Positions 28,529 through 43,704 of a stretch of 43,704 nucleotides of DNA are shown one piece after another (position 1 is the stretch's first letter; each line of letters opens with the position of its first letter). Where the stretch lies: positions 1 through 43,704 of the forward strand of contig CAWEXD010000009.1 of NCBI GenBank assembly GCA_963812945.1, in the 5' to 3' direction. The position numbers were made by a program, and so were the translations under genes. The DNA is from DASRDR01 sp963812945 [NCBI: uncultured Candidatus Rokubacteria bacterium] (lineage in GTDB: Bacteria; Methylomirabilota; Methylomirabilia; Rokubacteriales). The notes below the pieces were generated by a model, which was not told the DNA's origin, did not search any database, and saw only the letters and a program-made list of their open reading frames with translations.

Positions 28529-29653
28529 CTACGCGTCGTCCTCCACCTCCTCGCCCGAGCCCGGCGCGTCGACCGGCGCGCAGGCGGCCCGGATCCGAGC
28601 TGCCTCGCTCCGGAGCGCAGCGTCGCAGCCCGCGCGGGTCGGCGCCGAGGCGAGCACCGTGCAGATGGGATGCCCGGCGCGGATGATCTCGCCGGGGTGG
28701 GGGACGTCCCGGACGCCCCCTGCGAGCCATGCGGTCGTGTCCGGGGCCGCCACGGTCCGGGTGGCGTAGACGATGGCCTTGCCCCAGACGCCGGAAGGCT
28801 CGGCCGCGGGGCCGGGGAGCTGTCCCCGGCAGGCGGCGAGGTGAAGGCCGAACACCGACGCCCCGGACGCGCGCTCCACCAGCTCCATCGAGGCGCAGTA
28901 GCGCGGGTTCACTTCCAGCACCACGGGGCGATCACCGCGCAGGATGAAGTCGAAGCCGTTCAGCCCGCGGAGCCCGTACTCCCGGGTGAGCGCGTCGGCG
29001 ATCCCGGCGACCTCCTGGCGCGCCGCGGCCGGGCCGTCGAGCGGCATGACGTTGCCCGCATACCGGAAGCTCCGGGGCGCGTGGAGCTGCGCGGTCCACG
29101 CGAGGACCACGTTCCGGCGGCCGTCGGCCACGAACGCGGCCGACGCGCTCACCCCCTCGACGAGCTCCTGGAGGATCTGGGTTCCCGCGGGCGGCTGGCC
29201 GTCCCAGTGGCGCACGCCCTGGCCGCCGCCGCCGCGCGCGGGCTTCGAGAGCCATCGGCCGGCCACGGGCAGAGGATCCGACTCGCCGCGCGTGTCCGGC
29301 ACCGCAAACCCGTGCTGCGCGAGAAACGAGAGGAGCGCTCCGGGGTCGCGCACGCGACGGAGCATGTCGGGCGCGTTCCCGAGGAGCACGCGGTCCCGGG
29401 CGAGCTCGGCGACCACGCCCGGGTGGTTCTCGAGGCCCCCGCAGTACACGATCGCCTCGTAGTCGAGCTCGCGCGCCGCCTCGAGGATCGCCGCGGCCGA
29501 GTACCCGCGCCCGAGCTCCCGGAGGGAGTGCGTCTCGCAGAGGCGCACCTGGTCGAGGTCGCCGAAGTAGTCGACGGTGACGATGGCCGCGCCGGCGCGC
29601 ACGGCCGACTCGGCCAGCGCGCGGGTGGTGAGGCCCGCGATCAGGATCCGCAC
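28529..29653 (-). CDS. ATP-grasp ligase of the C1 island (MfnD-like)
   Basis: The 374-residue protein has the ATP-grasp order: a pre-ATP-grasp domain (RILIAGLTTRALAESAVRAG), then GRWLSKPARGGGGQGVRHW (ATP-binding loop), ILQELVEGVSASAAFVADG, and LNGFDFILRGDRPVVLEVNP with the Mg-binding ENPR-like Glu/Asn. It overlaps the DUF1464 gene by 13 bases and is next to mtdB, which places it in the H4MPT/methanofuran set. ATP-grasp enzymes there include tyramine-glutamate ligase MfnD. This identity is inferred from fold and position; another carboxylate-amine ligase role is possible. Confidence 0.7.
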   Translation of the reverse strand: MRILIAGLTTRALAESAVRAGAAIVTVDYFGDLDQVRLCETHSLRELGRGYSAAAILEAARELDYEAIVYCGGLENHPGVVAELARDRVLLGNAPDMLRRVRDPGALLSFLAQHGFAVPDTRGESDPLPVAGRWLSKPARGGGGQGVRHWDGQPPAGTQILQELVEGVSASAAFVADGRRNVVLAWTAQLHAPRSFRYAGNVMPLDGPAAARQEVAGIADALTREYGLRGLNGFDFILRGDRPVVLEVNPRYCASMELVERASGASVFGLHLAACRGQLPGPAAEPSGVWGKAIVYATRTVAAPDTTAWLAGGVRDVPHPGEIIRAGHPICTVLASAPTRAGCDAALRSEAARIRAACAPVDAPGSGEEVEDDA

Positions 29654-30744
29654 GCGAGCCCGAAGTCGCGCCGCACCTCGTCCGCGCCGGCCATGTATAG
29701 GTGGTCCAGCACGGTGCCGCGGCTCTGGCGGAGGCGCATGGCGTCGACCACGTCCCGGTGCGTCCCGCCGGCGAGACCGTCGGCGATCAGCGCCGCCCCC
29801 TGCGCCGCCTCCTTCACGCGCGTGGTGAAGCCGCCGAGCGGCCGCACGGGCGGCGTCCCGCCGAGCCGCTCGCCGAGGGCCAGGGCGACCGCGGGCACTC
29901 GGCCCACGCGGCCGGAGAGCAGCACCTCGCGGGCGCCCGGCGCGACCACGCGGAGCGTCGCGACCAGCTTCGCGGCCGCCTCCATCAGCGCCTCCCAGGC
30001 GAGCCGGGCCCGGGGCTCGCGGGTCGCGCGATCGGCGAGCTCGTCCGGCGCGAGGTCGGGCGCGCCGGCGACGAAGGCCGCTCCGCCGGTGAAGAGCGTC
30101 GACTTCCGCACGCGGCCGAGCGCGTAGGCGACCTCGCCATCGAGCGCGCCGAGCGCCCGGTAGCCGAGGCCGCCGGCGCTGCCACCGATGCCGTCCACGA
30201 TCCGCCCGCCCTCCACCGCCAGCGCCGCCGTGAAGAAGCTGCCCAGCTCGAGGAGCACGAACGCGGTCTCCTCGGGCGGGATCCGGAGCCGGCGCCCCTG
30301 GTCCCAGACGCCGAGCGCGGCGGCGCAGAGCTTGTCAGCGGTGCCCATGTCCACTCGGTTCACCTTCCGGTGCGCGGGGACCGTGTCGAGGTGGACGACG
30401 CCCGGCAGGAGGACGGCGGGGAGGCCACGGTCTCGCAGGAGCTCCACGATCGCCCGCAGGCCTCCGACGCGCTCCGGCTGCCCGCGGTCCTCCGGCCGCG
30501 CGAGGACCGCCAGATCCAGCTTCGCCGCGTCGAGGTCGGCGACGGGAAACAGCGGCAGCCCGTAGCCCGAGGGCGCGGCGATCAGGTCGAGCGGGCCCGC
30601 CGCCTCGAGCCGCGCCACCAGCTCCGCCGGGGCCCGGCGCGCGTCGTCGGCCGCGACCGACGCCTCGAGGAACACGCGACCGTCGGCGAGGCCGCAGAGG
30701 TCGAAGCTCTCGGTGCCGGGGTCGACGCCGACGACGCGGGGCAT
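29641..30744 (-). CDS. DUF1464-family ASKHA protein
   Basis: The 367-residue protein starts VVGVDPGTESFDLCGLADG, an ASKHA phosphate-binding start, and has LLELGSFFTAALAVEGGRIVD and TGGAAFVAGAPDLAP, with a later LLSGRVGRVPAV. This is the pattern of the DUF1464/COG2441 family, mostly known from archaea and from bacteria with the H4MPT pathway. It may be a kinase-like enzyme of cofactor synthesis. It follows mtdB by 29 bp and overlaps the ATP-grasp gene, so the three form one operon. The function is unproven. Confidence 0.72.
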   Translation of the reverse strand: MPRVVGVDPGTESFDLCGLADGRVFLEASVAADDARRAPAELVARLEAAGPLDLIAAPSGYGLPLFPVADLDAAKLDLAVLARPEDRGQPERVGGLRAIVELLRDRGLPAVLLPGVVHLDTVPAHRKVNRVDMGTADKLCAAALGVWDQGRRLRIPPEETAFVLLELGSFFTAALAVEGGRIVDGIGGSAGGLGYRALGALDGEVAYALGRVRKSTLFTGGAAFVAGAPDLAPDELADRATREPRARLAWEALMEAAAKLVATLRVVAPGAREVLLSGRVGRVPAVALALGERLGGTPPVRPLGGFTTRVKEAAQGAALIADGLAGGTHRDVVDAMRLRQSRGTVLDHLYMAGADEVRRDFGLACGS

Positions 30745-30773
30745 GGCGACGCGGCTCCGGGCGCGGTCAGCGG

Positions 30774-31628
30774 TCAGCTGGCGCGCGCGACCTCGTAGAT
30801 GCGCTCCAGGTCGATGACGGCGTCGTTCCGCTCGAAGAGCTGCGCGACGCAGGCGCGGTGGACCTTCATCTTCAGGCCGCCGATCCCGAGCGCGCCGAAC
30901 ACGCGCTTCCCGTCCTTCTCCGCGCCCTTGTCGGTGGCCTCGATGCCCTCGATGCCGAGGGGCGGCACCGCGTTGACGTCGGCCAGGGCCTTCAGGGTCG
31001 GGTGCTCGGCCCAGACCGCCCGGGGGAGGAAGCGGACGCCGGCGGCGCCGGCGCTCAGGCACACCCCGGCGCCGTCGAGCGCGCGCGTCATGCCGGCCTC
31101 GTCCCACGCCTCGAAGGGCGTGACGTCGACGCCGAAGCGCGCCTCGAGCCGCTCGCACGCCACCCGCGCGCGCGCGAGGGACCGGGAGCAGAGGGTGACG
31201 GTCGCCCCCTCGCGCGCCAGCATCGCCGCCGCCCGGATGCCGACGGGGCCGGTGCCGCCCAGGACCACCGCGCGCTCGCCGGTCAGCGTGACGACCCCGG
31301 CCAGGCGCGCCACCGCGGCGGCCGCCGTCGTGTTGCACCCGTTGGCGTCCATCATCACGCTCACGCGAAACGGGCCGAAGAAGGCCATCTGGACGGCTTC
31401 GGCGAGCGCCTCGGCCGCCGTCACGTCGGTGCCGCCCACCCAGATCGCGGTGTTGCGCAGCTCCGCCGGGCCGCGCGTGAAGATCGCGCCGTGCACGAGG
31501 GGAGTGACGTCCGCGGGCGCGACGCTCCCGTAGCTCAGGACAGCGTCGGCCCCGGCGTCATGGGCCACGATGCGATCGAAGGCGCTCGGGTGCCGATCCG
31601 GGTCGAGCTGCACGAGCACCTTCTTCAC
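30774..31628 (-). CDS. mtdB: NAD(P)-dependent methylene-H4MPT dehydrogenase
   Basis: The 284-residue protein begins KKVLVQLDPDRHPSAFDRIV and has the MtdA/MtdB signature VMMDANGCNTTAAAAVA, then a Rossmann AVVLGGTGPVGIRAAAMLAREG. It oxidises methylene-H4MPT to methenyl-H4MPT with NAD+ or NADP+, next to Mch in formaldehyde oxidation. The start is GTG with TAGGAT only 6 nt upstream and no ribosome-binding site, suggesting a leaderless transcript. It leads the DUF1464/ATP-grasp operon. Confidence 0.92.
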   Translation of the reverse strand: MKKVLVQLDPDRHPSAFDRIVAHDAGADAVLSYGSVAPADVTPLVHGAIFTRGPAELRNTAIWVGGTDVTAAEALAEAVQMAFFGPFRVSVMMDANGCNTTAAAAVARLAGVVTLTGERAVVLGGTGPVGIRAAAMLAREGATVTLCSRSLARARVACERLEARFGVDVTPFEAWDEAGMTRALDGAGVCLSAGAAGVRFLPRAVWAEHPTLKALADVNAVPPLGIEGIEATDKGAEKDGKRVFGALGIGGLKMKVHRACVAQLFERNDAVIDLERIYEVARAS

Positions 31629-32961: not shown

Positions 32962-34344
32962 CTAGGGCTCTCGCGGTCTCCGCCGCCCCTCGATCCGGAC
33001 CCGGCGGTGAGACGTGTCCTCGCGCTCCGGCGTCAGGTACCCCCAGCGGAGTGGCTGCTCCTGCACGTAGGTCTTCCCGAGGAGAAGTGCCAGGCGGGCC
33101 TTCATCAGCTCCTTGCCGAGGTAGAACGCGTGGCCGGGGTCCTGCACGGGGAGCTGCTCGAAGAGCGTCTGGATGTCCGTCCCGCTGACGAACAGCGTGT
33201 TGTTGAAGACGCAGATGGCGTCGCGCGTCGTGGCGATCCGGAAGTTCGGGTCCGTGATCGCCCCGTGGAGGGCGCGGAGCTCCGCCTCCGTGTAGTACTT
33301 GGGGCGGGCGTCCTTGACGGTGAGCAGCCGGTCGTCGATGTGCTTGGGGAGGACGCCGCGGTGACGCGCCGCGTACATGAGGCGGCGCGCCACGTCGACC
33401 TCCCGGACCGCGCCCCGCGCCCACGGGATCACCTCGGTCGTGAGCACGTGCCGGATGCCCAGCTCCTGGCAGAACCCGATCAGGAGCGCGTTCATCCCGG
33501 TCGTGTCGGCGTCGGTCAGCTCGGTGATGTTGCCGATCCCCATCAGCATCTCGGCCCCGGGGTGCCGCGCCCGCACCTGCACGTACCGGTCGAGCGCCGC
33601 GGCGAACCCGAAGCCGACGGGCTCGATCACCGGATCGACGATGCAGGGGCGGCCCAGCGCCTCCAGGTGGGCGATGGTCCGGTCCAGGGAGTCGAGATCC
33701 TGCGGGGTGTCCGGGATGAGGACCGGGGTGGCCCGGAGCTGGGCGGCCACCGGGAGGTTCTGGCTGTTGAGGCTCAGCACGTAGTCGACGCCGGCCCGGT
33801 CGGCGGCGAAAATCTCGGCGGGATCGAGGGTGTCGATGCTCAGGCGGAAGCCTCGCTCCTTGAGGAGGCCGACGACGCCGGCGACGTCGTCGAACTTCCG
33901 GTCGAGCGAGCAGCCGAGGTCGACGACGTCGGCGCCGCCCTGCCGGTAGTAGTCGGCCGCGCGCACGACCTCCTCGCGTGACAGGTACGGCACGTTGTTG
34001 ATCTCGGCGAAGATCAGGATGTCGTGGGCGCCGTACTCCTCCTTCAGGGTCGCCTGCCCGAAGTGCTCGGGCAGGTCGCGAAGGTCGGCGGGACCCTTCT
34101 CGGCCGGCACGCCCCAGCGGTCCTCGATCGCCCGCACGTCGCCTTCGCACAGGCCCGGGATGACGATGCGCTCCGAGCCCGCGACGCCGGTGAGGTGCTT
34201 CGCGATCCAGGAGGTCGTCATCAGCGCGGCGACCGTGATGCGGAGGACCGCCACCTCGTGGGGAAAGTCGGGCGCCATGCGCGCGAGCGTCGCGCGGAGG
34301 GCGGGCTCGGCGAGCTTGCCCGTGACGAACAGCGTCGTGGGCAC
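32962..34344 (-). CDS. Dihydropteroate-synthase-like protein of the H4MPT island (DUF6513-type)
   Basis: The ~460-residue protein opens TTLFVTGKLAEPALRATLAR and holds a TIM-barrel DHPS-like part with GGADVVDLGCSLDRKFDD, LSIDTLDPAEIFAADRAGV and YVLSLNSQNLPVA. C-terminally it has AITDPNFRIATTRDAICVFN. In bacteria this type is restricted to H4MPT/methanofuran gene sets and probably joins a pterin diphosphate to an aromatic amine, as DHPS does for folate. The GTG at 34344 begins the conserved region. A TTG at 34386 overlapping the PCD stop would add 14 residues and couple the genes. Confidence 0.8.
   Translation of the reverse strand: MPTTLFVTGKLAEPALRATLARMAPDFPHEVAVLRITVAALMTTSWIAKHLTGVAGSERIVIPGLCEGDVRAIEDRWGVPAEKGPADLRDLPEHFGQATLKEEYGAHDILIFAEINNVPYLSREEVVRAADYYRQGGADVVDLGCSLDRKFDDVAGVVGLLKERGFRLSIDTLDPAEIFAADRAGVDYVLSLNSQNLPVAAQLRATPVLIPDTPQDLDSLDRTIAHLEALGRPCIVDPVIEPVGFGFAAALDRYVQVRARHPGAEMLMGIGNITELTDADTTGMNALLIGFCQELGIRHVLTTEVIPWARGAVREVDVARRLMYAARHRGVLPKHIDDRLLTVKDARPKYYTEAELRALHGAITDPNFRIATTRDAICVFNNTLFVSGTDIQTLFEQLPVQDPGHAFYLGKELMKARLALLLGKTYVQEQPLRWGYLTPEREDTSHRRVRIEGRRRPREP
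32980..33009. repeat. 30-bp direct repeat copy 2
   Basis: Identical to 32133-32162 over 30 bases. It lies inside the 3' end of the DHPS-like gene; the two copies are 847 bases apart and bracket the GNAT-like gene. Confidence 0.9.
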
Positions 34345-34382
34345 GCGGCCGGGGGCCCGCGGCCGCTCGCGGTCGGCTTTGC

Positions 34383-34763
34383 TCAAGCGGGCTTGTCCGG
34401 ACTGCCGCCCTTCACCCACTTGTTGGGCGTGCCCTCCATGTGCGAGTCCGCGGCGGGCCGCCACAGCGCCGCGTCCTCGATCCGCCGGGCGAGCGCGAAG
34501 TCGCGGTCGGTGACCCCGTTGGCGGAATGCGTGCGGAGCTTCACCCACACCTTGCCCCACGTCACCTCGAGGTCGGGATGGTGGTACGCCGCCTCGGACA
34601 GGAAGCCGATCGTGTTCACGAGGGCGAGCGTGGTCAGCCAGCCGTCCGTGTTGTATTTTCGGCGGATCCAGCGGCCCTCGTACCACCAGCCCGGCAGCTC
34701 GGCGGGGAGCCGCCGCTCGATCTCGTCGTCGGCCAGGACGGGGAGCTTCTTCTCTTCCGCCAT
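34383..34763 (-). CDS. Pterin-4a-carbinolamine dehydratase-like protein
   Basis: The 126-residue protein has the PCD core GWWYEGRWIRRKYNTDG, LSEAAYHHPDLEVTWGKVWV (catalytic HH-P motif) and RTHSANGVTDRDFALARRI. PCD/DcoH dehydrates 4a-hydroxy-pterins or acts as a pterin-binding protein. Homologues are common in bacterial H4MPT clusters, where they have been suggested to act in H4MPT synthesis. It lies between the SDR and DHPS-like genes on the same strand. Confidence 0.9.
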   Translation of the reverse strand: MAEEKKLPVLADDEIERRLPAELPGWWYEGRWIRRKYNTDGWLTTLALVNTIGFLSEAAYHHPDLEVTWGKVWVKLRTHSANGVTDRDFALARRIEDAALWRPAADSHMEGTPNKWVKGGSPDKPA

Positions 34764-34857
34764 CGGGCACCTCCTGCGGAACCGGGCTCCGCCGATCTGT
34801 GTGAGTCCTGGAGACCCCCGGCCGCGCGCCGGCAGGCGAGGTCTCGCGGGCTCGGCC

Positions 34858-35672: not shown

Positions 35673-36392
35673 ATGCGCCTTCTGGTCAGCGTCGTGGATG
35701 CGTTGGAGGCACGGGTGGCGGCCGCGGCCGGCGCCGACGTCATCGACGTCAAGGACCCGTCCCGGGGCGCCCTCGGCGAGGCGGCGCCGCACGTCGTGCG
35801 CGCCGTGCGGGACGCCACCCCGGCGCACCTGCCGGTGAGCGCGGCGCTCGGGGACGGGCCCTTCACGCCCGCCGGCGCGGCGGACCTCGCCGGCGCGTCG
35901 GCGGCGAGCGGGGCGGCGTTCGTGAAGCTCGGCCTTCGCGACACCTCGCTCAGGGCGGCGTCCGCGAGCCTCCGCGCCGCGCGGGCGCGCCTGCCCGAGG
36001 GCGTCCGGCTGGTGGTGGCCGGGTTCGCCGACTTCGCCCGCGCCGGCGCGCCGCCGCCCCGCGACCTGCCGGCCCTCGCGGCCGCCGCGGGCGTGGACGG
36101 CTGTCTCCTCGACACCGCGGTGAAGGACGGGCGGGGGCTCTTCCACTGGCTCGACGACGCCGAGCTCCTGGCGTTCGTCGAGTCCTGCCGCCGCCACGGG
36201 CTCTTCTCGGCCCTGGCGGGCTCGCTCACGGTCGAGGACCTGGCGCGCCTCGGCCCGATCGGCCCGGACCTGGTCGGCGTTCGCGGCGCCGCGTGCGTGG
36301 GGGACCGGGTCGGCGGGCGTGTCGACGCCGAGCGCGTCCGCGCCCTCGTCCGGGCGCGAGGAAGCCGGCCGACGGCCGGTCTCCTGGCCTGA
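35673..36392 (+). CDS. mfnB: (5-formylfuran-3-yl)methyl phosphate synthase
   Basis: The 239-residue TIM-barrel enzyme joins two glyceraldehyde-3-phosphate molecules to form the furan ring of methanofuran. Catalytic lysines are at the expected places: Lys27 (DVIDVKDPSRGALG), Lys85 (AFVKLGL) and Lys151 in DTAVKDGRGLF, with Asp147. It is the only methanofuran gene here on the plus strand besides the HisA-like gene and diverges from the SDR. Its 3' end overlaps the convergent mfnE reading frame by 167 bases. Confidence 0.93.
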   Translation: MRLLVSVVDALEARVAAAAGADVIDVKDPSRGALGEAAPHVVRAVRDATPAHLPVSAALGDGPFTPAGAADLAGASAASGAAFVKLGLRDTSLRAASASLRAARARLPEGVRLVVAGFADFARAGAPPPRDLPALAAAAGVDGCLLDTAVKDGRGLFHWLDDAELLAFVESCRRHGLFSALAGSLTVEDLARLGPIGPDLVGVRGAACVGDRVGGRVDAERVRALVRARGSRPTAGLLA

Positions 36393-37041
36393 CCACGCCC
36401 AGGGCGCCGCCCGTCTCGATCAGGCGCGCGATCCGGTGCGGCAGGTGGCCGCGGACGAGCCAGCACCCGATCGCGGGCTCCAGGGCCCGGCGGAAGTACG
36501 GATCCACCACGCCCGCGAAGACATCGAGCGCGATCCGCCGGACGTGCGGGGGCATGCTCTGCGGCCCGCGGTCGGGGCCGATGAACCCATCCTGGTGCTT
36601 CACGAGCATGATGCGCCGGACGCGCAGGGTCCGGGCGAACCAGGCGGCGATCGAGTCCGAGGTCACGTCCCAGGAGTGGGGGAGCGGGTCGGCCCGCCGG
36701 AGCCAGGCTGACGGCGCCAGCACGTTCAGCCCGCCAGGCGAGAGCTCGCGCCGGCTCCGCACCAGCCTCGCGCGGGGAGCGAGATGCGCCAGGAGGTGGC
36801 CGTACTGGTCCATGGCCAGGATGGCCATCCAGTGGGCGGCCGAATCGCCGAGCCGGAAGCGCCGGTCGGCAAGGCGCACCGCGTCCGCGAAGCTTCCGCC
36901 GCCGGGGACCACGACGATCCAGTGTCGCCGCGCGGTGGCGGCCAGGGTCTCCATGAGGCGGCGAAGGTGCGTGGGCCGCGCGCCCAGGCTCCCCCCCACC
37001 TTGACCACCCAGTCTGGGGTCAGACTTTGACTTCGGGACAT
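36226..37041 (-). CDS. mfnE: [5-(Aminomethyl)furan-3-yl]methyl phosphate kinase
   Basis: The amino-acid-kinase-fold protein has VVKVGGSLG, a second WIVVVPGGGSFADAVR and IMLVKHQDGFIGPD. MfnE adds a second phosphate to aminomethylfuran phosphate before coupling to tyramine. The listed ATG at 37041 lies inside an inverted repeat; the GTG at 37008, directly at VKVGGSLG, may be the original start. The C-terminal ~60 residues are Arg/Gly/Pro-rich, antisense to mfnB, and probably not functional. Confidence 0.82.
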   Translation of the reverse strand: MSRSQSLTPDWVVKVGGSLGARPTHLRRLMETLAATARRHWIVVVPGGGSFADAVRLADRRFRLGDSAAHWMAILAMDQYGHLLAHLAPRARLVRSRRELSPGGLNVLAPSAWLRRADPLPHSWDVTSDSIAAWFARTLRVRRIMLVKHQDGFIGPDRGPQSMPPHVRRIALDVFAGVVDPYFRRALEPAIGCWLVRGHLPHRIARLIETGGALGVVRPGDRPSAGFLAPGRGRGRARRRHARRPGPPRTRRRERRPGPGRSGRGAPGPRP

Positions 37042-37090
37042 TTTCGTGACGCCACTGGCTCGACTTGTCCGGAAGTCAAAGTCTGACCCC
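37016..37090. repeat. REPIN/MITE-like inverted repeat between mfnF and mfnE
   Basis: GGGGTCAGACTTTGACTTC (37016-37034) is repeated as its exact reverse complement at 37072-37090. One mismatch and five more pairs extend each arm to about 25 bases around a loop of about 25. Arms of this size and sequence resemble REP-type dispersed repeats. The right arm supplies the TGA of mfnF and the left side supplies the ATG of mfnE. Confidence 0.9.
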
Positions 37091-38104
37091 GTCGAGGGCG
37101 AGCCAGGCGACCGCGACGGCCGGCGCGACGGTGCCCACGTCGACCTCGAGCACGCCGGCGAGATCCTGCGCCGGCATCCCGGCCCGCTCGGCCGCCCGGC
37201 GCGCGAGAAAGCTGCCGAGCCCGGTCGCGATCACGGGCGCCGGTCGCGCGAGGCGTCGCGCGACCTGGTGGAGGGCGCCGGCGATCTCCGCCACCTGCGC
37301 CTCGGCGACCGCCTCCGCGATGGCGCGGATCTCCCCGGCCAGGAGCATCTCGCCATCGGCGCACACGACTCGCGCCAGTCGCTCGCCGGCGAACTCCGCC
37401 GTGGGGGGGCGGCCATCCGGCGTCGGGGAGGTGTAGTCGGCCGCCGACAACGACCCCAGTAGCACGTGGACGTCGCCGCTCACCGCGAAGAGCTCCGAGG
37501 CCACGGGACACGCCCCGCCTCGGAACGGGACGCGGCGGACGATGGCGGCGACGTTGGTGCGGAGCACGCCCGTGTAGACCAGCTCCCCCGCGGAGAGCCG
37601 TTCGGGATCGGTCCGGCCGGTGGCGATCACACGCCCCCCGGCCACCGGAGTCACGTCGGTGGTGGTGGAGCCGATGTCCACCAGGAGCGCGTCGGGCACG
37701 AATCCTCCGACCAGCATCGCGGTGGCCAGCCAGTTGGAGGCGGCGGCGTCGAGCGGATGCGCCCGCGCGGTCGCCGTGTCCACGAAGGCGCCGGCGGTGG
37801 TGAACACGCGGACCGGCGCCCGCGACACGGCCTCCACGGCGTCGAGCACGAAGCCGACGCCCTCGCGCTTCGTCCGGAACACGTCGGACAGCTCCGCGGT
37901 CATCGTCACCGCGACCAGCTCGGCCGCCGGCAGCCCGGCGGCGAGCGCGCGGAGCACGTCCGGCAGGGCGTGCTTGTCGCGCCAGATCTCGAAGGGGCGG
38001 CTGGCCGTCTCCACCGTCCGCCCGCTCGCGCCCGCCTCGACGACGGCGGCCTTGACGTTGGCGCCGCCCACGTCCCAGCCGAGCACCCGGCTCGCACCTC
38101 CCAC
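37076..38104 (-). CDS. mfnF: MfnF-like H4MPT-linked C1-transfer/methanofuran synthesis protein (ASKHA)
   Basis: The 342-residue protein starts RVLGWDVGGANVKAAVVEAG and has VDIGSTTTDVTPVAGGRV and TGVLRTNVAAIVRR, the ASKHA nucleotide-binding layout of the hydantoinase-like COG1548 family. MfnF joins the aminomethylfuran diphosphate with γ-glutamyltyramine. The protein ends DGVRL, and these last codons and the stop lie in the inverted repeat, so the native C-terminus may be altered by a few residues. The start is GTG at 38104 or, with GGAGG nearby, GTG at 38086. Confidence 0.83.
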   Translation of the reverse strand: MGGASRVLGWDVGGANVKAAVVEAGASGRTVETASRPFEIWRDKHALPDVLRALAAGLPAAELVAVTMTAELSDVFRTKREGVGFVLDAVEAVSRAPVRVFTTAGAFVDTATARAHPLDAAASNWLATAMLVGGFVPDALLVDIGSTTTDVTPVAGGRVIATGRTDPERLSAGELVYTGVLRTNVAAIVRRVPFRGGACPVASELFAVSGDVHVLLGSLSAADYTSPTPDGRPPTAEFAGERLARVVCADGEMLLAGEIRAIAEAVAEAQVAEIAGALHQVARRLARPAPVIATGLGSFLARRAAERAGMPAQDLAGVLEVDVGTVAPAVAVAWLALDGVRL

Positions 38105-38125: not shown

Positions 38126-38881
38126 ATGCGCCCGACCGTGCGCGTGATCCCGGTGCTCGATCTCAAGGGCGGCGTGGCCGTGCACGCGGTGCGCGGCGAG
38201 CGCCACGCCTACCGGCCGGTCGAGAGCGTGCTCTCCGCCTCGGCGGAACCCGTCGCGCTCGCCCGGGCCTTCCACGAGCGCCTCGGCTCGGATGCGTGCT
38301 ACGTGGCGGACCTCGACGCCATCGCCGGCGCCGGCGACCACGGTGCGGTCATCGGGACGATCGCCGCGCTCGGCCTGTCGGTCTGGCTCGACGCGGGCGT
38401 GGCGACGGCGGACGACGCGCGCCGCGCCGTCCTGTGCGGCGCCTCGCGCGTGATCATCGGGACCGAGACGCTCCGGGACGCGCGCGACTTGCCGGCGATG
38501 GCGGAAGCCGTGAGGGCAGCCGGCCGGGGGCGGGCAGACTGCATCCTGAGCCTGGACCATCGCGACGGTCAGCTCCTCGGCGGCGCGCCGGCCGTGGCCG
38601 CGGCCGGCCCGGCGGATCTGGCGGCCACCGCCTGGGCGGCGGGCATCCGCGCGTTCATCGTGCTGGACCTCGCGAGGGTCGGGGCCCGGACCGGTCCGCC
38701 GGTGGAGACGGCCCGCCCGTACCGCGAGCATCTGCCGGACGCGGAGATCGTGCTGGGCGGCGGGGTGCGGGACCGGGAGGACCTCCGCGCCCTCGCGAGC
38801 GCCGGATATCACGGGGTCCTGGTCGGGACGGCGCTCCACACCGGCGTGCTCGGGCCCGAAGACCTGGTCCCGGCCGGCTAG
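38126..38881 (+). CDS. HisA/HisF-related TIM-barrel protein of the C1 island
   Basis: The 251-residue protein begins RVIPVLDLKGGVAVHAVRGE, with LDLKGG where HisA has the first phosphate site. It has VADLDAIAGAG, WLDAGVATADDAR and VLGGGVRDREDLRALA with GVLVGTALHTG at the second phosphate site. It resembles HisA but sits in the H4MPT/methanofuran island rather than a his operon; homologues recur in such islands with no assigned step. Its stop overlaps the convergent stop of folK-mptA (CTAG). Confidence 0.82.
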   Translation: MRPTVRVIPVLDLKGGVAVHAVRGERHAYRPVESVLSASAEPVALARAFHERLGSDACYVADLDAIAGAGDHGAVIGTIAALGLSVWLDAGVATADDARRAVLCGASRVIIGTETLRDARDLPAMAEAVRAAGRGRADCILSLDHRDGQLLGGAPAVAAAGPADLAATAWAAGIRAFIVLDLARVGARTGPPVETARPYREHLPDAEIVLGGGVRDREDLRALASAGYHGVLVGTALHTGVLGPEDLVPAG

Positions 38882-40338
38882 GCGTCGAGGCGCGCCGCGA
38901 GCCACGCCGGGAGCGTGGTGCTCCCGCGCGGCTGGCCGTCCGCGAGCTCGCCCCGGATCTCGCCGAGCCGCCCCCCGCGCTGGGCGAAGACGTCGTGCTT
39001 GTGGATCGTCTCCATGTTGACCTGCCGCGCGTGGACGTAGGCGTCGTCGGGCAGCTCGGGGTACGTGTTGACGAAGTTCCGCAGGATCTCGCGGACCGTG
39101 TCCTCGACGAAGCGCGGATGCCGGTGCGCCTTCTCCACGACGAACAGCTCGTCCGGGCGCTTCAGCAGATCGTAGCTCTCCGAGCTCATCGAGGCCTCGA
39201 CGATCTCGACCAGGTCCTCGGCGCGGAGCGGGCGGTCGGCGCCGACGAGGAGCCGCCCGCGCCCTCGCTGGTTGTGGGTCGCGACCGGCACCAGGGACAG
39301 CACCTGCTCGGTGAGGTCCGGCGAGAGGCCGTGCTCGCGCAGGCGCGCCGCCGCCTGCGCGCGGACCATTTCCTGGGCGCACGGACAGGCCATCATGCCC
39401 TCCGCCTCCACGCCGATCAGCTGGACCGTGCGGCGGGGCGTGGCGGCGGCGATGCCGATCAGGGTGTAGAGCTCCTGGGAGGGCTTCCCCGAGACGGGCG
39501 CTCGCCGCTCGAGGGGAAACTGGGCGCGGATCTCCACGTCCGCCCGCCCGGCGCGGTGTCCCACGGTCAGGGCCTGGGCGATCCGCTCGGCCAGGGTCTC
39601 GATCATCGGCGCCTCGAACGCGCCGAGGTCCTCCAGCACCTCCTCCACGGTGTCGCTGAAGCGCGACATGTGCGCGCCCTTCTGGTCCGGCGGGAGCTCG
39701 ACGAAGAGGTCGAGCGTCGCGTAGAAGAGCCCGCCGCCGTCGGCCAGCCGGATGATCCGGTGAAGGCCCGTCACGCCCGTCTGGTCGAGCCGGAGGCGCG
39801 CCGACGGCGATTCCTCCTGGACGTCCCGCTCGAGGCGCGCCGTCAGGCCCCGCTCCACCCGGACGATGCCGCGCGTGTCCCCGAGGTCCTGGAGGAGCTC
39901 GGCGACGGTCCGCCCGAGCACCGGGTGCCGGAGGTCGGGCGCGATGTCGTGGAGCGGCACCAGGACGAACCCGCGCTCGGCGACGCGCGGGTGCGGCACC
40001 TGGAGCGTCTCGGTGTCGACCACCTGGTCGCCGAAGAAGAGGATATCGATGTCGATCGGCCGCGGGCCGTACCGCTCGCCGCCGCGGCGGCCCATGCGGG
40101 CCTCGATGCGCTTGACGACGGCCAGGAGGCCCGCCGGGTCGAGCGCGGTGACGCCCTTCAGCGCCAGGTTCAGGAACCGGGGCTGATCGGCGACGTGCGC
40201 GGGCTCCGTCTCGTAGACGGGCGAGACGCGCTCGATGCGCACGTGGCTGCGGAGGCTCTGGAGCGCCTCCGCCAGGTTTGCCTGGCGGTCGCCCAGGTTG
40301 GCGCCCAGCCCGAGGTACACGACCGACGGCGACGTCAC
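38878..40338 (-). CDS. FolK::MptA fusion: HPPK plus GTP cyclohydrolase (MptA/FolE2 type)
   Basis: The 486-residue protein has two domains. Residues ~5-165 are 6-hydroxymethyl-dihydropterin pyrophosphokinase (VVYLGLGANLGDRQANL; RYGPRPIDIDILFF is the HPPK signature). Residues ~195-486 are a FolE2/MptA-type GTP cyclohydrolase, with SGKPSQELYTLIGIAA, GMMACPCAQEMVRAQ (metal Cys) and NMETIHKHDVFAQ. Together they would make early and late intermediates of the pterin branch of H4MPT. The GTG overlaps the PTPS stop (GTGA). A fused HPPK-MptA enzyme is unusual. Confidence 0.85.
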   Translation of the reverse strand: MTSPSVVYLGLGANLGDRQANLAEALQSLRSHVRIERVSPVYETEPAHVADQPRFLNLALKGVTALDPAGLLAVVKRIEARMGRRGGERYGPRPIDIDILFFGDQVVDTETLQVPHPRVAERGFVLVPLHDIAPDLRHPVLGRTVAELLQDLGDTRGIVRVERGLTARLERDVQEESPSARLRLDQTGVTGLHRIIRLADGGGLFYATLDLFVELPPDQKGAHMSRFSDTVEEVLEDLGAFEAPMIETLAERIAQALTVGHRAGRADVEIRAQFPLERRAPVSGKPSQELYTLIGIAAATPRRTVQLIGVEAEGMMACPCAQEMVRAQAAARLREHGLSPDLTEQVLSLVPVATHNQRGRGRLLVGADRPLRAEDLVEIVEASMSSESYDLLKRPDELFVVEKAHRHPRFVEDTVREILRNFVNTYPELPDDAYVHARQVNMETIHKHDVFAQRGGRLGEIRGELADGQPRGSTTLPAWLAARLDA

Positions 40339-40850
40339 GGACGCTCCGCCCGGCCCTGCGGGCCCCCGCCGAGCGCCTCGCGGTAGATGGCGCACTGGCC
40401 GAACGACTCGTCCACCTCGACCTGGAGCGCCGTGGCGCCCGGCGGCAGCGTGTGGAGCGCCTGCCGGAGCTCCTGGGCGATCCACCAGGCCAGCATCTCG
40501 GCGGTGGTGTTGGGGATCGGGAGGAGCACCACGTCGCTCAGGGGGAACACGTACCGCTTCTCGCGGTAGGCGGCCTCGACCTCGGTCCCGCCGGGAGTGA
40601 CGCGGATGAGCGCGCTCTTCGTCGGGAGGAGCATCCGGTGGTCCAGGCGGTCCACCACGGCCTTGAGCGCGCGCTTGAGCCGCGTGAAGTCGAACACGTA
40701 CGCGTTCTCGTCGAGCGGGCCCTCGAGCGCGACCGCCACCCGGTAGTTGTGCCCGTGGAGCGGCTCGCACTCGTGCCCGTCGTAGGTGATGAAGTGACCG
40801 GCGCAGAACACGGTGTAGTCCTTCTCGATGCGCACCCGGTAGTCGCTCAC
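40335..40850 (-). CDS. 6-Pyruvoyl-tetrahydropterin synthase-like (PTPS/QueD family)
   Basis: The 171-residue protein has the PTPS zinc site: FCAGHFITY and CEPLHGHNYRV, with a later LDHRMLL and C-terminal PNTTAEMLAWWIAQEL. The active motif CEPLHGH has both the Cys of the QueD type and the Glu found in PTPS-III, the version that converts dihydroneopterin triphosphate to hydroxymethyl-dihydropterin in place of FolB. In this position it could supply substrate for the FolK domain of its neighbour. It is joined to both neighbours by GTGA overlaps. Confidence 0.88.
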   Translation of the reverse strand: MSDYRVRIEKDYTVFCAGHFITYDGHECEPLHGHNYRVAVALEGPLDENAYVFDFTRLKRALKAVVDRLDHRMLLPTKSALIRVTPGGTEVEAAYREKRYVFPLSDVVLLPIPNTTAEMLAWWIAQELRQALHTLPPGATALQVEVDESFGQCAIYREALGGGPQGRAERP

Positions 40851-41872
40851 GGGCGGATTCCCGCCCTGTGCGCCCGGTGGACGGGCTTCCGGCGTGCCTG
40901 GCGGGCCGGCCGGTCTCGCGCGGGGGCCTCGAGCAGCCACACGAAGAGCGCGGCCGCGACGAGATCCGCCGAGGTTCCGGGATTGAGGCGGTTGCCGCGC
41001 CGCCGGAGATCCCGGTCGAGCCGCCGCGCGGCGGCGAGCCCTTTCGGGGTCTCGAAGCCCCCGGCCCGCACCGCCGCCCCGGCCTGCCGGGCCACCGCCG
41101 CCGCGGCGGCGGCGCCGGCCTTGCGGGCGATGAGCGTGTCCGGCACCCGGGCCATCAGCTCGAGATGAGCCTCCGCGATGGCGTCGAGCAGCCCGAGACC
41201 CCGGCCGAGCGCCCGGCGGAGGCTCGCCAGGACCAGGTCGAACGTGACTGCGAACCCTCGCACGTACTCCGACGCGATGGTGTCGCGCCCGGCGGACAGC
41301 CGCATCGCCTCGCGCAGGGTGACCGCGGGCGGCCGCCGGACGTCCGCGGCCCCGCCCGATCCGAGCCCGCCTGGCCGAGCCAGCCGGATCGCCCGGTACG
41401 CCCAGCGCGCGTCGTTCACGTCGAGCCCGCGCAGGACGCGGGCGAGCCGGCGCCGGAAGTCCGTCCGCTCCGGCGACCGCGCGGCCGCCGCGAGCGGCGC
41501 GAACAGGAGGGCCATGCCGAGGTTCGTGTTGGAGGGCGCCACGCGGGCGGTCGCCGCCACCGCGCGGTACACCGTCCGGCCGACCCGCCCCGGCGCGGCG
41601 GAGGCGACGGCGGCCCCGAGCGCCTGGGCGCTCAGGGCGAAGTCCTCGAAGCGCGCATCCGCGAAGCCGCGGGTCGGCGTCACGTTGCCGACCTTCTCCG
41701 CGCACGCCTCGAGCGCGCAGGCGAGCGTGGCGGCGGCGGCGAGGCGCGCCGCCGACGGCCGCACGGCCGAGATGGAGTTGACCAGACGGCCTGCGGCCTG
41801 CGGCGGACGCCGTGCGGCCTGCGGCGGACGACCCGAGGCCTGCGCCAACGGCCGTGCGGCCTGGGCGCTCAC
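40847..41872 (-). CDS. Triphosphoribosyl-dephospho-CoA-synthase-like (CitG/MdcB) protein of the H4MPT island
   Basis: The 341-residue mostly helical protein has LACALEACAEKVGNVTPTRG, PSNTNLGMALLFAPLAAAAR and TPKGLAAARRLDRDLRRRG then NPGTSADLVAAALFVWLLE. These are landmarks of CitG/MdcB-type proteins. Homologues occur in bacterial H4MPT clusters without citrate lyase, and may transfer a phosphoribosyl-type group during cofactor assembly; this is inference. The first ~28 residues are a Pro/Ala/Gln/Arg repeat (RPPQAARRPPQAAGR) made of a ~21-bp DNA repeat. It is joined by GTGA overlaps on both sides. Confidence 0.78.
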   Translation of the reverse strand: MSAQAARPLAQASGRPPQAARRPPQAAGRLVNSISAVRPSAARLAAAATLACALEACAEKVGNVTPTRGFADARFEDFALSAQALGAAVASAAPGRVGRTVYRAVAATARVAPSNTNLGMALLFAPLAAAARSPERTDFRRRLARVLRGLDVNDARWAYRAIRLARPGGLGSGGAADVRRPPAVTLREAMRLSAGRDTIASEYVRGFAVTFDLVLASLRRALGRGLGLLDAIAEAHLELMARVPDTLIARKAGAAAAAAVARQAGAAVRAGGFETPKGLAAARRLDRDLRRRGNRLNPGTSADLVAAALFVWLLEAPARDRPARQARRKPVHRAHRAGIRP

Positions 41873-42822
41873 CGGAGCGCTCCCGCGGGCAGGGCGCGCC
41901 CCCGCGCCGCGACCGCGTGCTCCGCGATCACGGCGGCGACGTCGACCTCCGTCGTCTGCTGGAGCCCGCGCCATCCGGGGATTCCGTTGACCTCGATCAC
42001 GAGCGCCCGTCCGTCCTCCGCGTGCAGGAGGTCCACCCCGGCATAGTCCGCCTCCACGAGGGCCGCCGCCTGGAGGCTCAGGCGCTCCAGCGCGCCGGAC
42101 AGGACGGCGGCCTCCGTCCGGGCGCCCTGCGACACGTTCGTCTTCCAGCCGGCGGCTCGCCGCGTCATCGCGGCCACCAGCCGCCCGCCGACGACGAACG
42201 CGCGGAGATCGCGCCCGCCATGAGGCACGAACTCCTGGAGATAGAACACCGAGCGCGTCACTTCCAGCGCCCGGCAGGTACGGTAGGCGAGGTCGGGGTC
42301 GGTCACCCGCACGATGCCACGGCCCTCGGAGCCGAAGAGGGGCTTGATGACGACGTCCCCTCCGAGCGCCTCGAAGGCCTCCAGCGCGTCGTCGAGCCGC
42401 TCGCAGACCCGGGTTCGTGGCGTCGGCAGCCCCGCGTCCTCTAGGAGCGCCGAGGTGAAGTACTTGTCCACGGTGCGCTCGATGCAGCGCGGGGAGTTGA
42501 CGACCGCCACACCGAGCCGCGCCAGGCGGTGGAGGGCGTCGACCCGGAAGATGACCTGCTCGAGCGAGCCCGCGGGGATCGCGCGCACGATCACCGTCGC
42601 GCAGTCGTCGAGGCGGACGCCCCCGGCGGCGACGCGGGATCGATCACCGGCGGCGGCTGAGGCAGCGGTGCCCCCCGTAGCGGCGGTGGCTCCCGTCGTG
42701 GACACGGCGGCCGCGAGGGCCGTGATGGGAGCCACGACCGTCTCCGCGCCCCGCTCCCGGAGGGCGTGCGCCAGGCGAGCCTCGTGCCAGCCGGACCGCG
42801 AGCCCAGGATGGCGACCTTCAC
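41869..42822 (-). CDS. RimK/MptN-like ATP-grasp ligase
   Basis: The 317-residue protein starts KVAILGSRSGWHEARLAHAL. It contains the RimK-type signature NSPRCIERTVDKYFTSALLE, DVVIKPLFGSEGRGIVRV (ATP loop), LQEFVPHGGRDLRAFVVG and LVIEVNGIPGWRGLQ. It is probably a glutamate or other amino-acid ligase that extends the side chain of the pterin or furan cofactor (MptN-like; the position matches the 'orf17' type gene of methylotroph clusters). It is joined by GTGA overlaps to mch and the CitG-like gene. Confidence 0.83.
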   Translation of the reverse strand: MKVAILGSRSGWHEARLAHALRERGAETVVAPITALAAAVSTTGATAATGGTAASAAAGDRSRVAAGGVRLDDCATVIVRAIPAGSLEQVIFRVDALHRLARLGVAVVNSPRCIERTVDKYFTSALLEDAGLPTPRTRVCERLDDALEAFEALGGDVVIKPLFGSEGRGIVRVTDPDLAYRTCRALEVTRSVFYLQEFVPHGGRDLRAFVVGGRLVAAMTRRAAGWKTNVSQGARTEAAVLSGALERLSLQAAALVEADYAGVDLLHAEDGRALVIEVNGIPGWRGLQQTTEVDVAAVIAEHAVAARGRALPAGALR

Positions 42823-43704
42823 GCGGTCCTCCCGCCGCCGGCCGCCCCGCCGACGCCGGCCACGCCGCCAACTCCGAACGATGCCTTCAGCACGTCCGGC
42901 GCGAGCCGCCCCGCATGGAAGACGCGTCCCGAGGCCAGGTTGTTGACGACCACCTCGGCCGGGCTGAACAGCATCCGGTCGATCTTGTAGAAGTCGTTGC
43001 CGGCCCGCTTGAAGATCTCGTAGAAGGGCGTCCCGTAGTCCGCCGACGTCGAGGCCGGCAGCCGCTCGACCATCGCCCCGACCTCGTCGTCGTCCGCGTG
43101 GACCGCGAAGTACGCGCGCGTGCCGTAGAGGATGCAGTCGTTGGTCCACCCGATGGCGCGGAGGTCGTTCTTCGCCACCGGCGCGAGTGGGCAGACGCCC
43201 GCGCCGCTCCGCACGCGGCGCACGTCGAAGCCGAGCTCGAGCATCTTGTGGAGCCCGGTCTCGACCGAGCGCGCGGCCACCTGAACGCAGCCGGCGATGC
43301 TCGCGGTGGGGGCGATGAGGAGCCGGAGGGCCGCCGGCCGGACCCGGCACTTGTCGGCGACGAATCGGACGACCGCCTCGTCGGGCAGTGCCCGTCCCTC
43401 GAGCACGAGCACGGCCGTGTCCGCGGTCTCCGTGTAGCCGATCCGCTCGTAGAGCTCCTTCTCCACGCGGGCGACGCTGCGGGCCGGCCCCGAGCCCATC
43501 GCGAAGTAGCCGGGCGGGTCGATCGCCCAGCCGGCGTACTGGCTCGCCAGGCACGCGGCCACCGGGTGGTCGGTCGTCACGCCCACGGCGGGGAGCCAGA
43601 GCCCGCCCACGTCGACGCTGGTGAAGGACACCGAGGCGAGCCCCGCAAGGCAGACCTCCGCCAGCCTCCGTCCGGTCTCGAGCCCGCCGGCGACGGCGAC
43701 GCCG
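42819..43704 (-). CDS. mch: Methenyl-H4MPT cyclohydrolase (5' end cut by window)
   Basis: The visible ~295 residues read GVAVAGGLETGRRLAEVCLA, then LWLPAVGVTTDHPVAACLA, YAGWAID, LIAPTASIAGCVQVAARSVE and GTPFYEIFKRAGNDFYKID. This matches Mch, which hydrolyses methenyl-H4MPT to formyl-H4MPT. The start lies beyond 43704. The last ~15 residues are Gly/Ala-rich and not conserved. It heads, or lies within, the unit mch-MptN-like-CitG-like-PTPS-FolK::MptA. Confidence 0.95.
   Translation of the reverse strand, partial: GVAVAGGLETGRRLAEVCLAGLASVSFTSVDVGGLWLPAVGVTTDHPVAACLASQYAGWAIDPPGYFAMGSGPARSVARVEKELYERIGYTETADTAVLVLEGRALPDEAVVRFVADKCRVRPAALRLLIAPTASIAGCVQVAARSVETGLHKMLELGFDVRRVRSGAGVCPLAPVAKNDLRAIGWTNDCILYGTRAYFAVHADDDEVGAMVERLPASTSADYGTPFYEIFKRAGNDFYKIDRMLFSPAEVVVNNLASGRVFHAGRLAPDVLKASFGVGGVAGVGGAAGGGRTA

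What the first reader, a model, noticed from the sequence alone, without database searches (positions are those of the whole stretch)
38878..40338. HPPK (FolK) fused to an MptA-type GTP cyclohydrolase
A bacterial folate-type kinase domain and an archaeal-type cyclohydrolase domain are in one chain, inside an H4MPT island. Archaea use an unrelated kinase (MptE) at this step, so this looks like a bacterial remodelling of H4MPT pterin synthesis, with entry (MptA) and activation (FolK) placed in one protein. Seen: both domain signatures in one frame of 486 codons with no stop or frameshift between. Inference: dedicated to H4MPT rather than folate.
Basis: partly seen in the sequence, partly recalled or inferred. 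Interest (0 to 1): 0.68.

Follow-up and report, generated by a model that had tools for sequence, protein, structure and literature searches.

The report
Two-in-one pterin enzyme, not H4MPT-specific
One bacterial gene joins the first and third enzymes of the pathway to the pterin core of folate-like coenzymes; here it sits among genes for an archaeal-type coenzyme, but in relatives that show no sign of that coenzyme the same joined gene seems to be the ordinary folate enzyme.

Summary
Window 40338-38878 is one 486-codon frame: HPPK domain (residues 8-134), short flexible linker, MptA-class GTP cyclohydrolase (172-465). Codon-position composition is uniform across the junction and the same fusion occurs in two named MAGs, so it is no artefact. 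It lies in a real H4MPT/methylofuran island, directly behind a PTPS gene with the CExxHGH (PTPS-I/III) motif.

'Dedicated to H4MPT' is not supported. Of 201 genomes drawn from the phylum of the best match, 12 have an MptA above cut-off and all 12 have HPPK in front (11 in one frame, one across an assembly gap). Ten of the 12 lack both H4MPT markers tested. Setting aside G020, whose locus resembles a marker-positive one, nine remain: in all nine the fused copy is the only HPPK found, in seven also the only GTP cyclohydrolase found, and all nine have a DHPS match. There it most likely serves folate. Against this: G020 has a second, truncated HPPK behind a DHPS gene.

Best reading: the fusion does steps 1 and 3, PTPS (FolB in one genome) does step 2, supplying pterin diphosphate to folate and, in this island, H4MPT. 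New variant of a known kind (compare FolKE).

The parts
38878..40338 (-). HPPK - MptA-class GTP cyclohydrolase fusion, 486 aa, GTG start
39937..40317 (-). HPPK (FolK) domain, residues 8-134; D96, D98, H116, R122 kept
   Evidence: PF01288 4.2e-37; TIGR01498 over cut-off; residues
39826..39852 (-). flexible linker, residues 163-171
   Evidence: only stretch with pLDDT under 50
38944..39825 (-). MptA-class GTP cyclohydrolase domain, residues 172-465; C318, C320, H355, E397, H446, H448 kept
   Evidence: TIGR00294 282.7 bits, cut-off 220; these residues invariant in 3 fusions and in 19 rows, 16 of them unfused
40335..40850 (-). PTPS (COG0720-type) gene, 171 aa, overlapping the fusion by 4 bases
   Evidence: PF01242 3.1e-26; translation and start contexts
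40749..40769 (-). CEPLHGH motif in PTPS = CExxHGH of PTPS-I/III
   Evidence: sequence; motif definition PMC5041015 passages
40847..41974 (-). CitG-like (triphosphoribosyl-dephospho-CoA synthase family) gene, overlapping PTPS by 4 bases
   Evidence: PF01874 4.6e-67
41914..42792 (-). RimK-type ATP-grasp glutamate ligase domain (MptN / MyfB-like)
   Evidence: PF08443; NF040720 MptN 249 bits, under cut-off 350
42819..43631 (-). methenyl-H4MPT cyclohydrolase Mch (frame runs on towards the window end; profile matched from position 63-64)
   Evidence: PF02289 3.3e-102; TIGR03120 341 bits, cut-off 228.8
38126..38881 (+). HisA/HisF-like gene (Orf17-like), convergent with the fusion, ends overlap by 4 bases
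   Evidence: PF00977 6.5e-34; Orf17 = PF00977 and needed for methylofuran, PMC8141765 passages
37076..38104 (-). MfnF-like / Orf9-type protein
   Evidence: TIGR03123 'probable H4MPT-linked C1 transfer pathway protein' 340.3 bits, cut-off 244.1; MfnF model 219.1, under cut-off 520
36226..37041 (-). MfnE-like amino-acid-kinase-family protein
   Evidence: PF00696; NF040622 99.5 bits, under cut-off 300
32962..34770 (-). dihydropteroate-synthase-like protein (DUF6513 + DUF4346), candidate consumer of the pterin diphosphate for H4MPT
   Evidence: PF20123 3.4e-23, PF14251 3e-8; TIGR00284 180 bits, under cut-off 256.65
30774..31628 (-). methylene-H4MPT dehydrogenase (MtdB-type)
   Evidence: PF09176 3.1e-31

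Best explanation
The gene encodes a bifunctional pterin-branch enzyme. Its C-terminal MptA-class domain acts on GTP (step 1). The side chain is cut to give 6-hydroxymethyl-7,8-dihydropterin by the PTPS-I/III protein encoded by the overlapping upstream gene (step 2; FolB in one relative). The N-terminal HPPK domain then adds diphosphate from ATP (step 3). PTPS plus the fusion thus form a three-step GTP-to-pterin-diphosphate module. The module is general, not H4MPT-specific: in relatives without the H4MPT markers it feeds folate; here, inside an H4MPT/methylofuran island with a DHPS-like protein, it most likely feeds H4MPT, and probably folate as well. Shown: fusion, domain classes, kept motif residues, gene order, distribution in the relatives sampled. 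Inferred: both activities, that PTPS accepts the product of the cyclohydrolase, and the destination of the product.
For: Domain and cut-off tests (six other fusions); motif residues; two folded domains. Same fusion in L001 and L002. In 201 genomes of the L001 phylum, 15 match TIGR00294 and 12 pass the cut-off; all 12 have HPPK in front (the one in two frames is split by a run of N). MCH in 1 of these 12, DUF6513 in 2. FolE absent in 9 of 12; a second HPPK match in only 1 of the 12 (G020). CExxHGH PTPS in 10 of 12, adjacent to the fusion in G001, G007, G020; G163 has FolB and no PTPS; FolB over cut-off in 1 of 12; archaeal MptD family PF04038 in 0 of 20 genomes, with 3 of 14 controls ringing. 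PTPS-III can replace FolB: PMC4674097 and PMC5041015 passages.
Against: No activity is shown. Archaeal MptA is taken to make a 2',3'-cyclic phosphate (recalled; implied by a reference title), which PTPS-III is not known to me to use; MptB was not searched for. G137 has neither FolB nor a CExxHGH PTPS in the assembly. The CExxHGH PTPS is not peculiar to fusion genomes: of 7 non-fusion genomes searched (G003, G004, G005, G010, G016, G018, G027), G016 and G027, both without FolB, have it too. G020 carries the start of a second HPPK behind DHPS, cut by a contig end, so the fused HPPK need not be the folate one there. No genome is held for the window, so separate folE/folK cannot be checked. Fused MptA domains form one side of a branch with only 75/67 support, and fused HPPK domains do not form one clade. 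Most relatives are MAGs or drafts of untold completeness.
Confidence: 0.71

Rival explanations
1. One reading: in H4MPT islands this is an enzyme dedicated to H4MPT, with folate made by separate FolE and FolK elsewhere in the genome (even if the fusion first arose for folate).
For: Operon-like setting with mch, an MptN-like ligase, CitG-like and PTPS; much the same gene set in the L001 island; G001 has a separate FolE; G020 has the start of a separate HPPK directly behind a DHPS gene, cut by a contig end.
Against: G001, the one relative with Mch, has no second HPPK match. Ten of 12 relatives with the fusion lack both MCH and DUF6513. G024 has two MCH matches and no TIGR00294 match, so MCH occurs in bacteria without it.
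Confidence: 0.2
2. Two proteins from one frame: an internal start makes free MptA as well as the fusion, or the fusion is cut after translation.
For: GTG codons at residues 140 and 161 and a low-confidence linker at 163-171.
Against: No clear ribosome site before them by eye; junction length nearly constant in three distant fusions; in the window, L001, L002 and 11 further genomes (14 of 14 fusion loci examined) the two coding parts stay in tandem.
Confidence: 0.07
3. Misassembly or frameshift chimera.
For: None beyond the window being of unknown origin.
Against: Same order and junction in other assemblies, two of them on contigs of 5.96 and 5.61 Mb; uniform codon bias.
Confidence: 0.01

Closest known systems
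FolKE of Lactococcus lactis (HPPK + GTP cyclohydrolase I)
   Same: HPPK and a GTP cyclohydrolase in one gene, steps 3 and 1 of the pterin branch (PMC6153639 passage; folKEPQC cluster in PMC1971073 passages)
   Different: Its cyclohydrolase is FolE-type (recalled); here it is MptA-class (PF02649/TIGR00294), another Pfam family
MptA of Methanocaldococcus / Haloferax
   Same: TIGR00294 over cut-off; Haloferax uses MptA for folate (PMC8305020 passages)
   Different: Of 14 controls five match TIGR00294 and three pass the cut-off (which three is not told); whether the archaeal ones are free-standing was not read; metal and product of the bacterial form untested
PTPS-I/III of COG0720
   Same: CExxHGH motif (PMC5041015 passages)
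   Different: Here encoded next to the enzyme of the steps before and after it, in an H4MPT island
'Archaeal-like' H4MPT/methylofuran cluster of methylotrophic bacteria
   Same: mch, mtdB-type, MfnE-like, MfnF-like, HisA-like Orf17 (PMC8141765 passages)
   Different: Carries its own GTP-to-pterin-diphosphate genes; that the Methylobacterium cluster lacks these is recalled, not tested
FolB-FolK fusion of Bifidobacterium longum and HPPK-DHPS fusions
   Same: HPPK joined to another enzyme of the pathway (PMC1971073 passage; molecule names)
   Different: Other partners

Membership tests
HPPK (FolK) | Match over the curated cut-off of TIGR01498 / PF01288 | tested here: met
   136.4 bits (54.1); 127.5 (25.7)
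HPPK (FolK) | Acidic pair and His/Arg of the active site (E. coli D95, D97, H115, R121; roles recalled, D95, D97 and H115 also named in PDB titles) | tested here: met
   D96, D98, H116, R122 in the window protein, invariant in 3 fusions
HPPK (FolK) | Diphosphoryl transfer activity | not testable with these tools
   needs an assay
MptA (TIGR00294) | Match over its curated cut-off and under that of FolE2 | tested here: met
   282.7 (220) against FolE2 137.7 (215); 6 of 6 other fusions likewise
MptA (TIGR00294) | Metal ligands of the COG1469 fold (gonococcal FolE2 C147, H159, E201, H246; roles recalled) | tested here: met
   aligned to C318, H355, E397, H446
MptA (TIGR00294) | Fe2+ dependence and cyclic phosphate product | not testable with these tools
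   PTPS/FolB co-occurrence hints at another product; not shown
FolKE | HPPK + GTP cyclohydrolase in one chain | tested here: met
FolKE | Cyclohydrolase of the FolE family PF01227 | tested here: not met
   Only PF02649 and PF01288 match the protein
PTPS-I/III | CExxHGH | tested here: met
   CEPLHGH; motif from PMC5041015 passages
H4MPT-dedicated enzyme | Found only with H4MPT genes | tested here: not met
   10 of 12 genomes with the fusion lack both MCH and DUF6513; some may be incomplete, two are near-whole on one contig
H4MPT-dedicated enzyme | Separate folK and folE in the same genome | tested here: inconclusive
   Window genome not held; G001: FolE yes, second HPPK no; G020: FolE no, truncated second HPPK yes; G007: neither

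The most novel reading that the evidence does not exclude
Some bacterial H4MPT islands carry a complete private GTP-to-pterin-diphosphate module (PTPS + HPPK-MptA) that runs beside a separate folate route, and their MptA-class domain, unlike archaeal MptA, releases dihydroneopterin triphosphate for PTPS to cleave, so that MptB, MptD, MptE and FolB are all bypassed.
Probability: 0.32. Interest if true: 0.55.

Novelty: new variant of a known kind. Interest (0 to 1): 0.4.

Why it matters
It gives a concrete candidate for how some bacteria make the pterin half of H4MPT, and shows an 'archaeal' GTP cyclohydrolase class in bacteria, apparently often for folate. The FolB/PTPS pattern among fusion genomes makes the product of bacterial MptA directly testable. 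Annotators should not read TIGR00294 as proof of H4MPT.

Tried and rejected
Rejected: misassembly; FolE2 identity of the second domain; the archaeal aldolase family PF04038 as the middle step in the 20 genomes searched; an H4MPT-only distribution. Led nowhere: lineage of the window (no genome held; best relative 66% identical in its best segment); papers sought by identifier (not held); phylum of G002, where 108 of 288 genomes match TIGR00294 but only G002 passes the cut-off; neighbours of the fusion in L002 (10 proteins scanned), none an H4MPT gene (aldehyde ferredoxin oxidoreductase, DNA polymerase B, a lyase and others). One search read the HisA-like gene in a wrong frame (no hit); one search corrected it.

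Full report
What is there. The interval holds one open frame on the minus strand, 40338 to 38878, 486 codons. Pfam finds HPPK at residues 8-134 and GCHY-1 (FolE2/MptA family) at 171-452. NCBIfam places the second domain in MptA (TIGR00294, 282.7 bits, cut-off 220) and not in FolE2 (137.7, cut-off 215). Residues that I recall as catalytic or metal-binding are kept in both domains. The codon-position pattern does not change across the junction. AlphaFold2 with a 19-row alignment (3 fusions, 16 unfused MptA) gives two folded domains and a linker of low confidence at 163-171; pTM is 0.62, so the way the domains sit together is unsure. Foldseek returns GTP cyclohydrolase-IB and HPPK structures.

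Setting. On the same strand upstream lie PTPS (4-base overlap), a CitG-like gene (4-base overlap with PTPS), a RimK-type ligase close to MptN, and Mch. Downstream lie a convergent HisA-like gene, an MfnF-like protein (TIGR03123, over cut-off), an MfnE-like kinase, a DHPS-like protein with DUF6513 and DUF4346, and an MtdB-type dehydrogenase. HisA-like Orf17 and homologues of MfnE and MfnF belong to methylofuran synthesis in methylotrophs (passages of PMC8141765). Several of these names rest on matches under NCBIfam cut-offs (MptN, MfnE, MfnF, TIGR00284).

Relatives. A scan of genome contigs with the MptA domain alone confirmed 139 relatives and kept 80. The two best, L001 (record title: Ardenticatenia bacterium) and L002 (Lentisphaerae bacterium), have the HPPK fused in front; in the other 78 a search with the window's HPPK found none in the locus, some loci being short. 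Most of those titles name Thermoleophilia-type Actinobacteria. The scan needs exact short peptides, so it misses relatives. L001 repeats much of the window island: ATP-grasp, Mch, RimK, CitG, PTPS, fusion, SDR, HisA-like, amino-acid kinase, DUF6513.

Whole genomes. Of 201 genomes drawn from the phylum of G001 (the genome of L001; group names are not told), 15 match TIGR00294 and 12 pass the cut-off. All 12 have HPPK directly in front: 11 in one frame, and G169 in two frames because of a run of N between them. Methenyl-H4MPT cyclohydrolase is in 1 of the 12, G001, and in 2 of 400 genomes of that phylum; DUF6513 is in 2 of the 12, G001 and G007. So ten of the 12 lack both markers. One of the ten, G020, is near-identical to G007 at the locus and shares its PTPS and HisA-like neighbours, so I set it aside as possibly H4MPT-linked and count nine as not. 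In these nine the fused copy is the only HPPK match, a strong PF00809 match in a frame of DHPS size (297-404 aa) is present in all nine, and FolE is absent in seven (G055, G064, G073, G113, G137, G153, G163) and present in two (G121, G169). The G153 and G073 copies lie on contigs of 5.96 and 5.61 Mb in genomes of 6.0 and 5.6 Mb. The genes around the fusion there gave no match to the window's island genes; I saw only their first residues and did not run them against a library. So the fusion most likely serves folate in at least those seven.

The middle step. FolB passes its cut-off in only 1 of the 12 (G163), and that genome has no PTPS match. A PTPS with CExxHGH is in 10 of the other 11; G137 is the exception. 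In G001, as in the window, it lies directly upstream of the fusion; in G007 and G020 directly downstream; elsewhere it is apart. The motif marks PTPS-I/III enzymes that can act in folate as well as queuosine synthesis (passages of PMC5041015); PTPS-III can stand in for FolB (passage of PMC4674097). PMC5041015 also says that in some archaea PTPS-III acts in H4MPT synthesis, perhaps on the monophosphate. The motif is not peculiar to fusion genomes: G016 and G027, without the fusion and without FolB, have it too. The archaeal aldolase family PF04038 was found in 0 of 20 genomes. This pattern supports, but does not prove, a three-step module: MptA-class domain, PTPS, HPPK domain.

Is it dedicated to H4MPT? 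In G001, the only relative with the island and Mch, a separate FolE exists but no second HPPK match and no FolB over cut-off. So the HPPK half is probably shared with folate there, allowing for MAG gaps. G020 points the other way: behind its DHPS gene on contig C143 it has the first 46 or so residues of another HPPK, running off the contig end; whether that gene goes on into a cyclohydrolase cannot be seen. G007 has neither FolE nor a second HPPK match. G002 has a separate FolE, HPPK and FolB together on one contig besides the fusion, but no MCH or DUF6513, and it is a 14.1 Mb assembly that I would not trust far. G024 has two MCH matches and no TIGR00294 match. For the window itself no genome is held.

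Trees. In an MptA tree of 40 rows the 14 fusions are one side of a branch (75/67, weak), and the window pairs with L001 (91/83). In an HPPK tree of 23 rows the fused ones are not one clade: the free HPPK of G027, a genome that has FolE and is not among the TIGR00294 matches, sits with eight fused ones at 99/96. One fusion event with later loss is possible; it is not shown.

Known or new. FolKE of Lactococcus joins HPPK with GTP cyclohydrolase I activity (passage of PMC6153639). The present fusion has the same logic with a different cyclohydrolase family. Searches listed no paper that I recognised as describing an HPPK-MptA fusion. I saw passages of PMC1971073, PMC5041015, PMC8305020, PMC4674097, PMC5103831, PMC3334880, PMC6153639 and PMC8141765 and the first of three parts of PMC5020050, not whole papers, and the library lacks most subscription journals. 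PMC5020050 lists Chloroflexi among bacteria with H4MPT-linked genes.

Verdict. The island is right. The claim that the fusion is an H4MPT adaptation is not borne out: it is a more general pterin-branch enzyme, found here in an H4MPT island together with the enzyme of the step between its two domains. Most useful open points: what the bacterial MptA-class domain releases, and whether organisms with the island keep a second folate route.

Noticed in passing
L003-L080; G003, G004, G005: Unfused MptA-class enzymes in many loci with Thermoleophilia-type titles; 3 of 3 genomes tested lack FolE but have FolB, HPPK and DHPS matches, so this 'archaeal' class seems to serve bacterial folate.
   Followed up: partly
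G020:C143:5350-6291 (L127): A DHPS gene followed by the start of a second HPPK gene that runs off the contig end, in a genome that also has the fusion.
   Followed up: partly
G024:C28:124914-125846 and 136604-137539: Two MCH matches on one contig in a genome without a TIGR00294 match; of the window's island genes only an SDR was matched nearby.
   Followed up: partly
G027:C69:6887-7267 (L212): Free HPPK (192-residue frame) that groups with fused HPPKs; the genome has FolE and a CExxHGH PTPS: possible loss of the cyclohydrolase half.
   Followed up: partly
L002:6846-13591: Fusion beside an aldehyde ferredoxin oxidoreductase and a family B DNA polymerase, while a separate FolE, HPPK and FolB lie together on another contig of the same 14.1 Mb assembly.
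   Followed up: partly
L001 (G001:C29:11332-12266) and the end of its fusion: Mch of L001 is matched over two frames, and the last residues of its fusion differ from the window and L002, which suggests frame errors in that MAG.
   Followed up: no
window 29641-31338 (-): DUF1464 protein (298 bits) next to the MtdB-type gene; only a weak match to 'methanogenesis marker 12' (26.8 bits). Role in the island unknown to me.
   Followed up: no
window 40847-41974 (-): CitG-like gene between the RimK-type ligase and PTPS, also in L001 at the same place; its role in H4MPT or methylofuran synthesis is not known to me.
   Followed up: no
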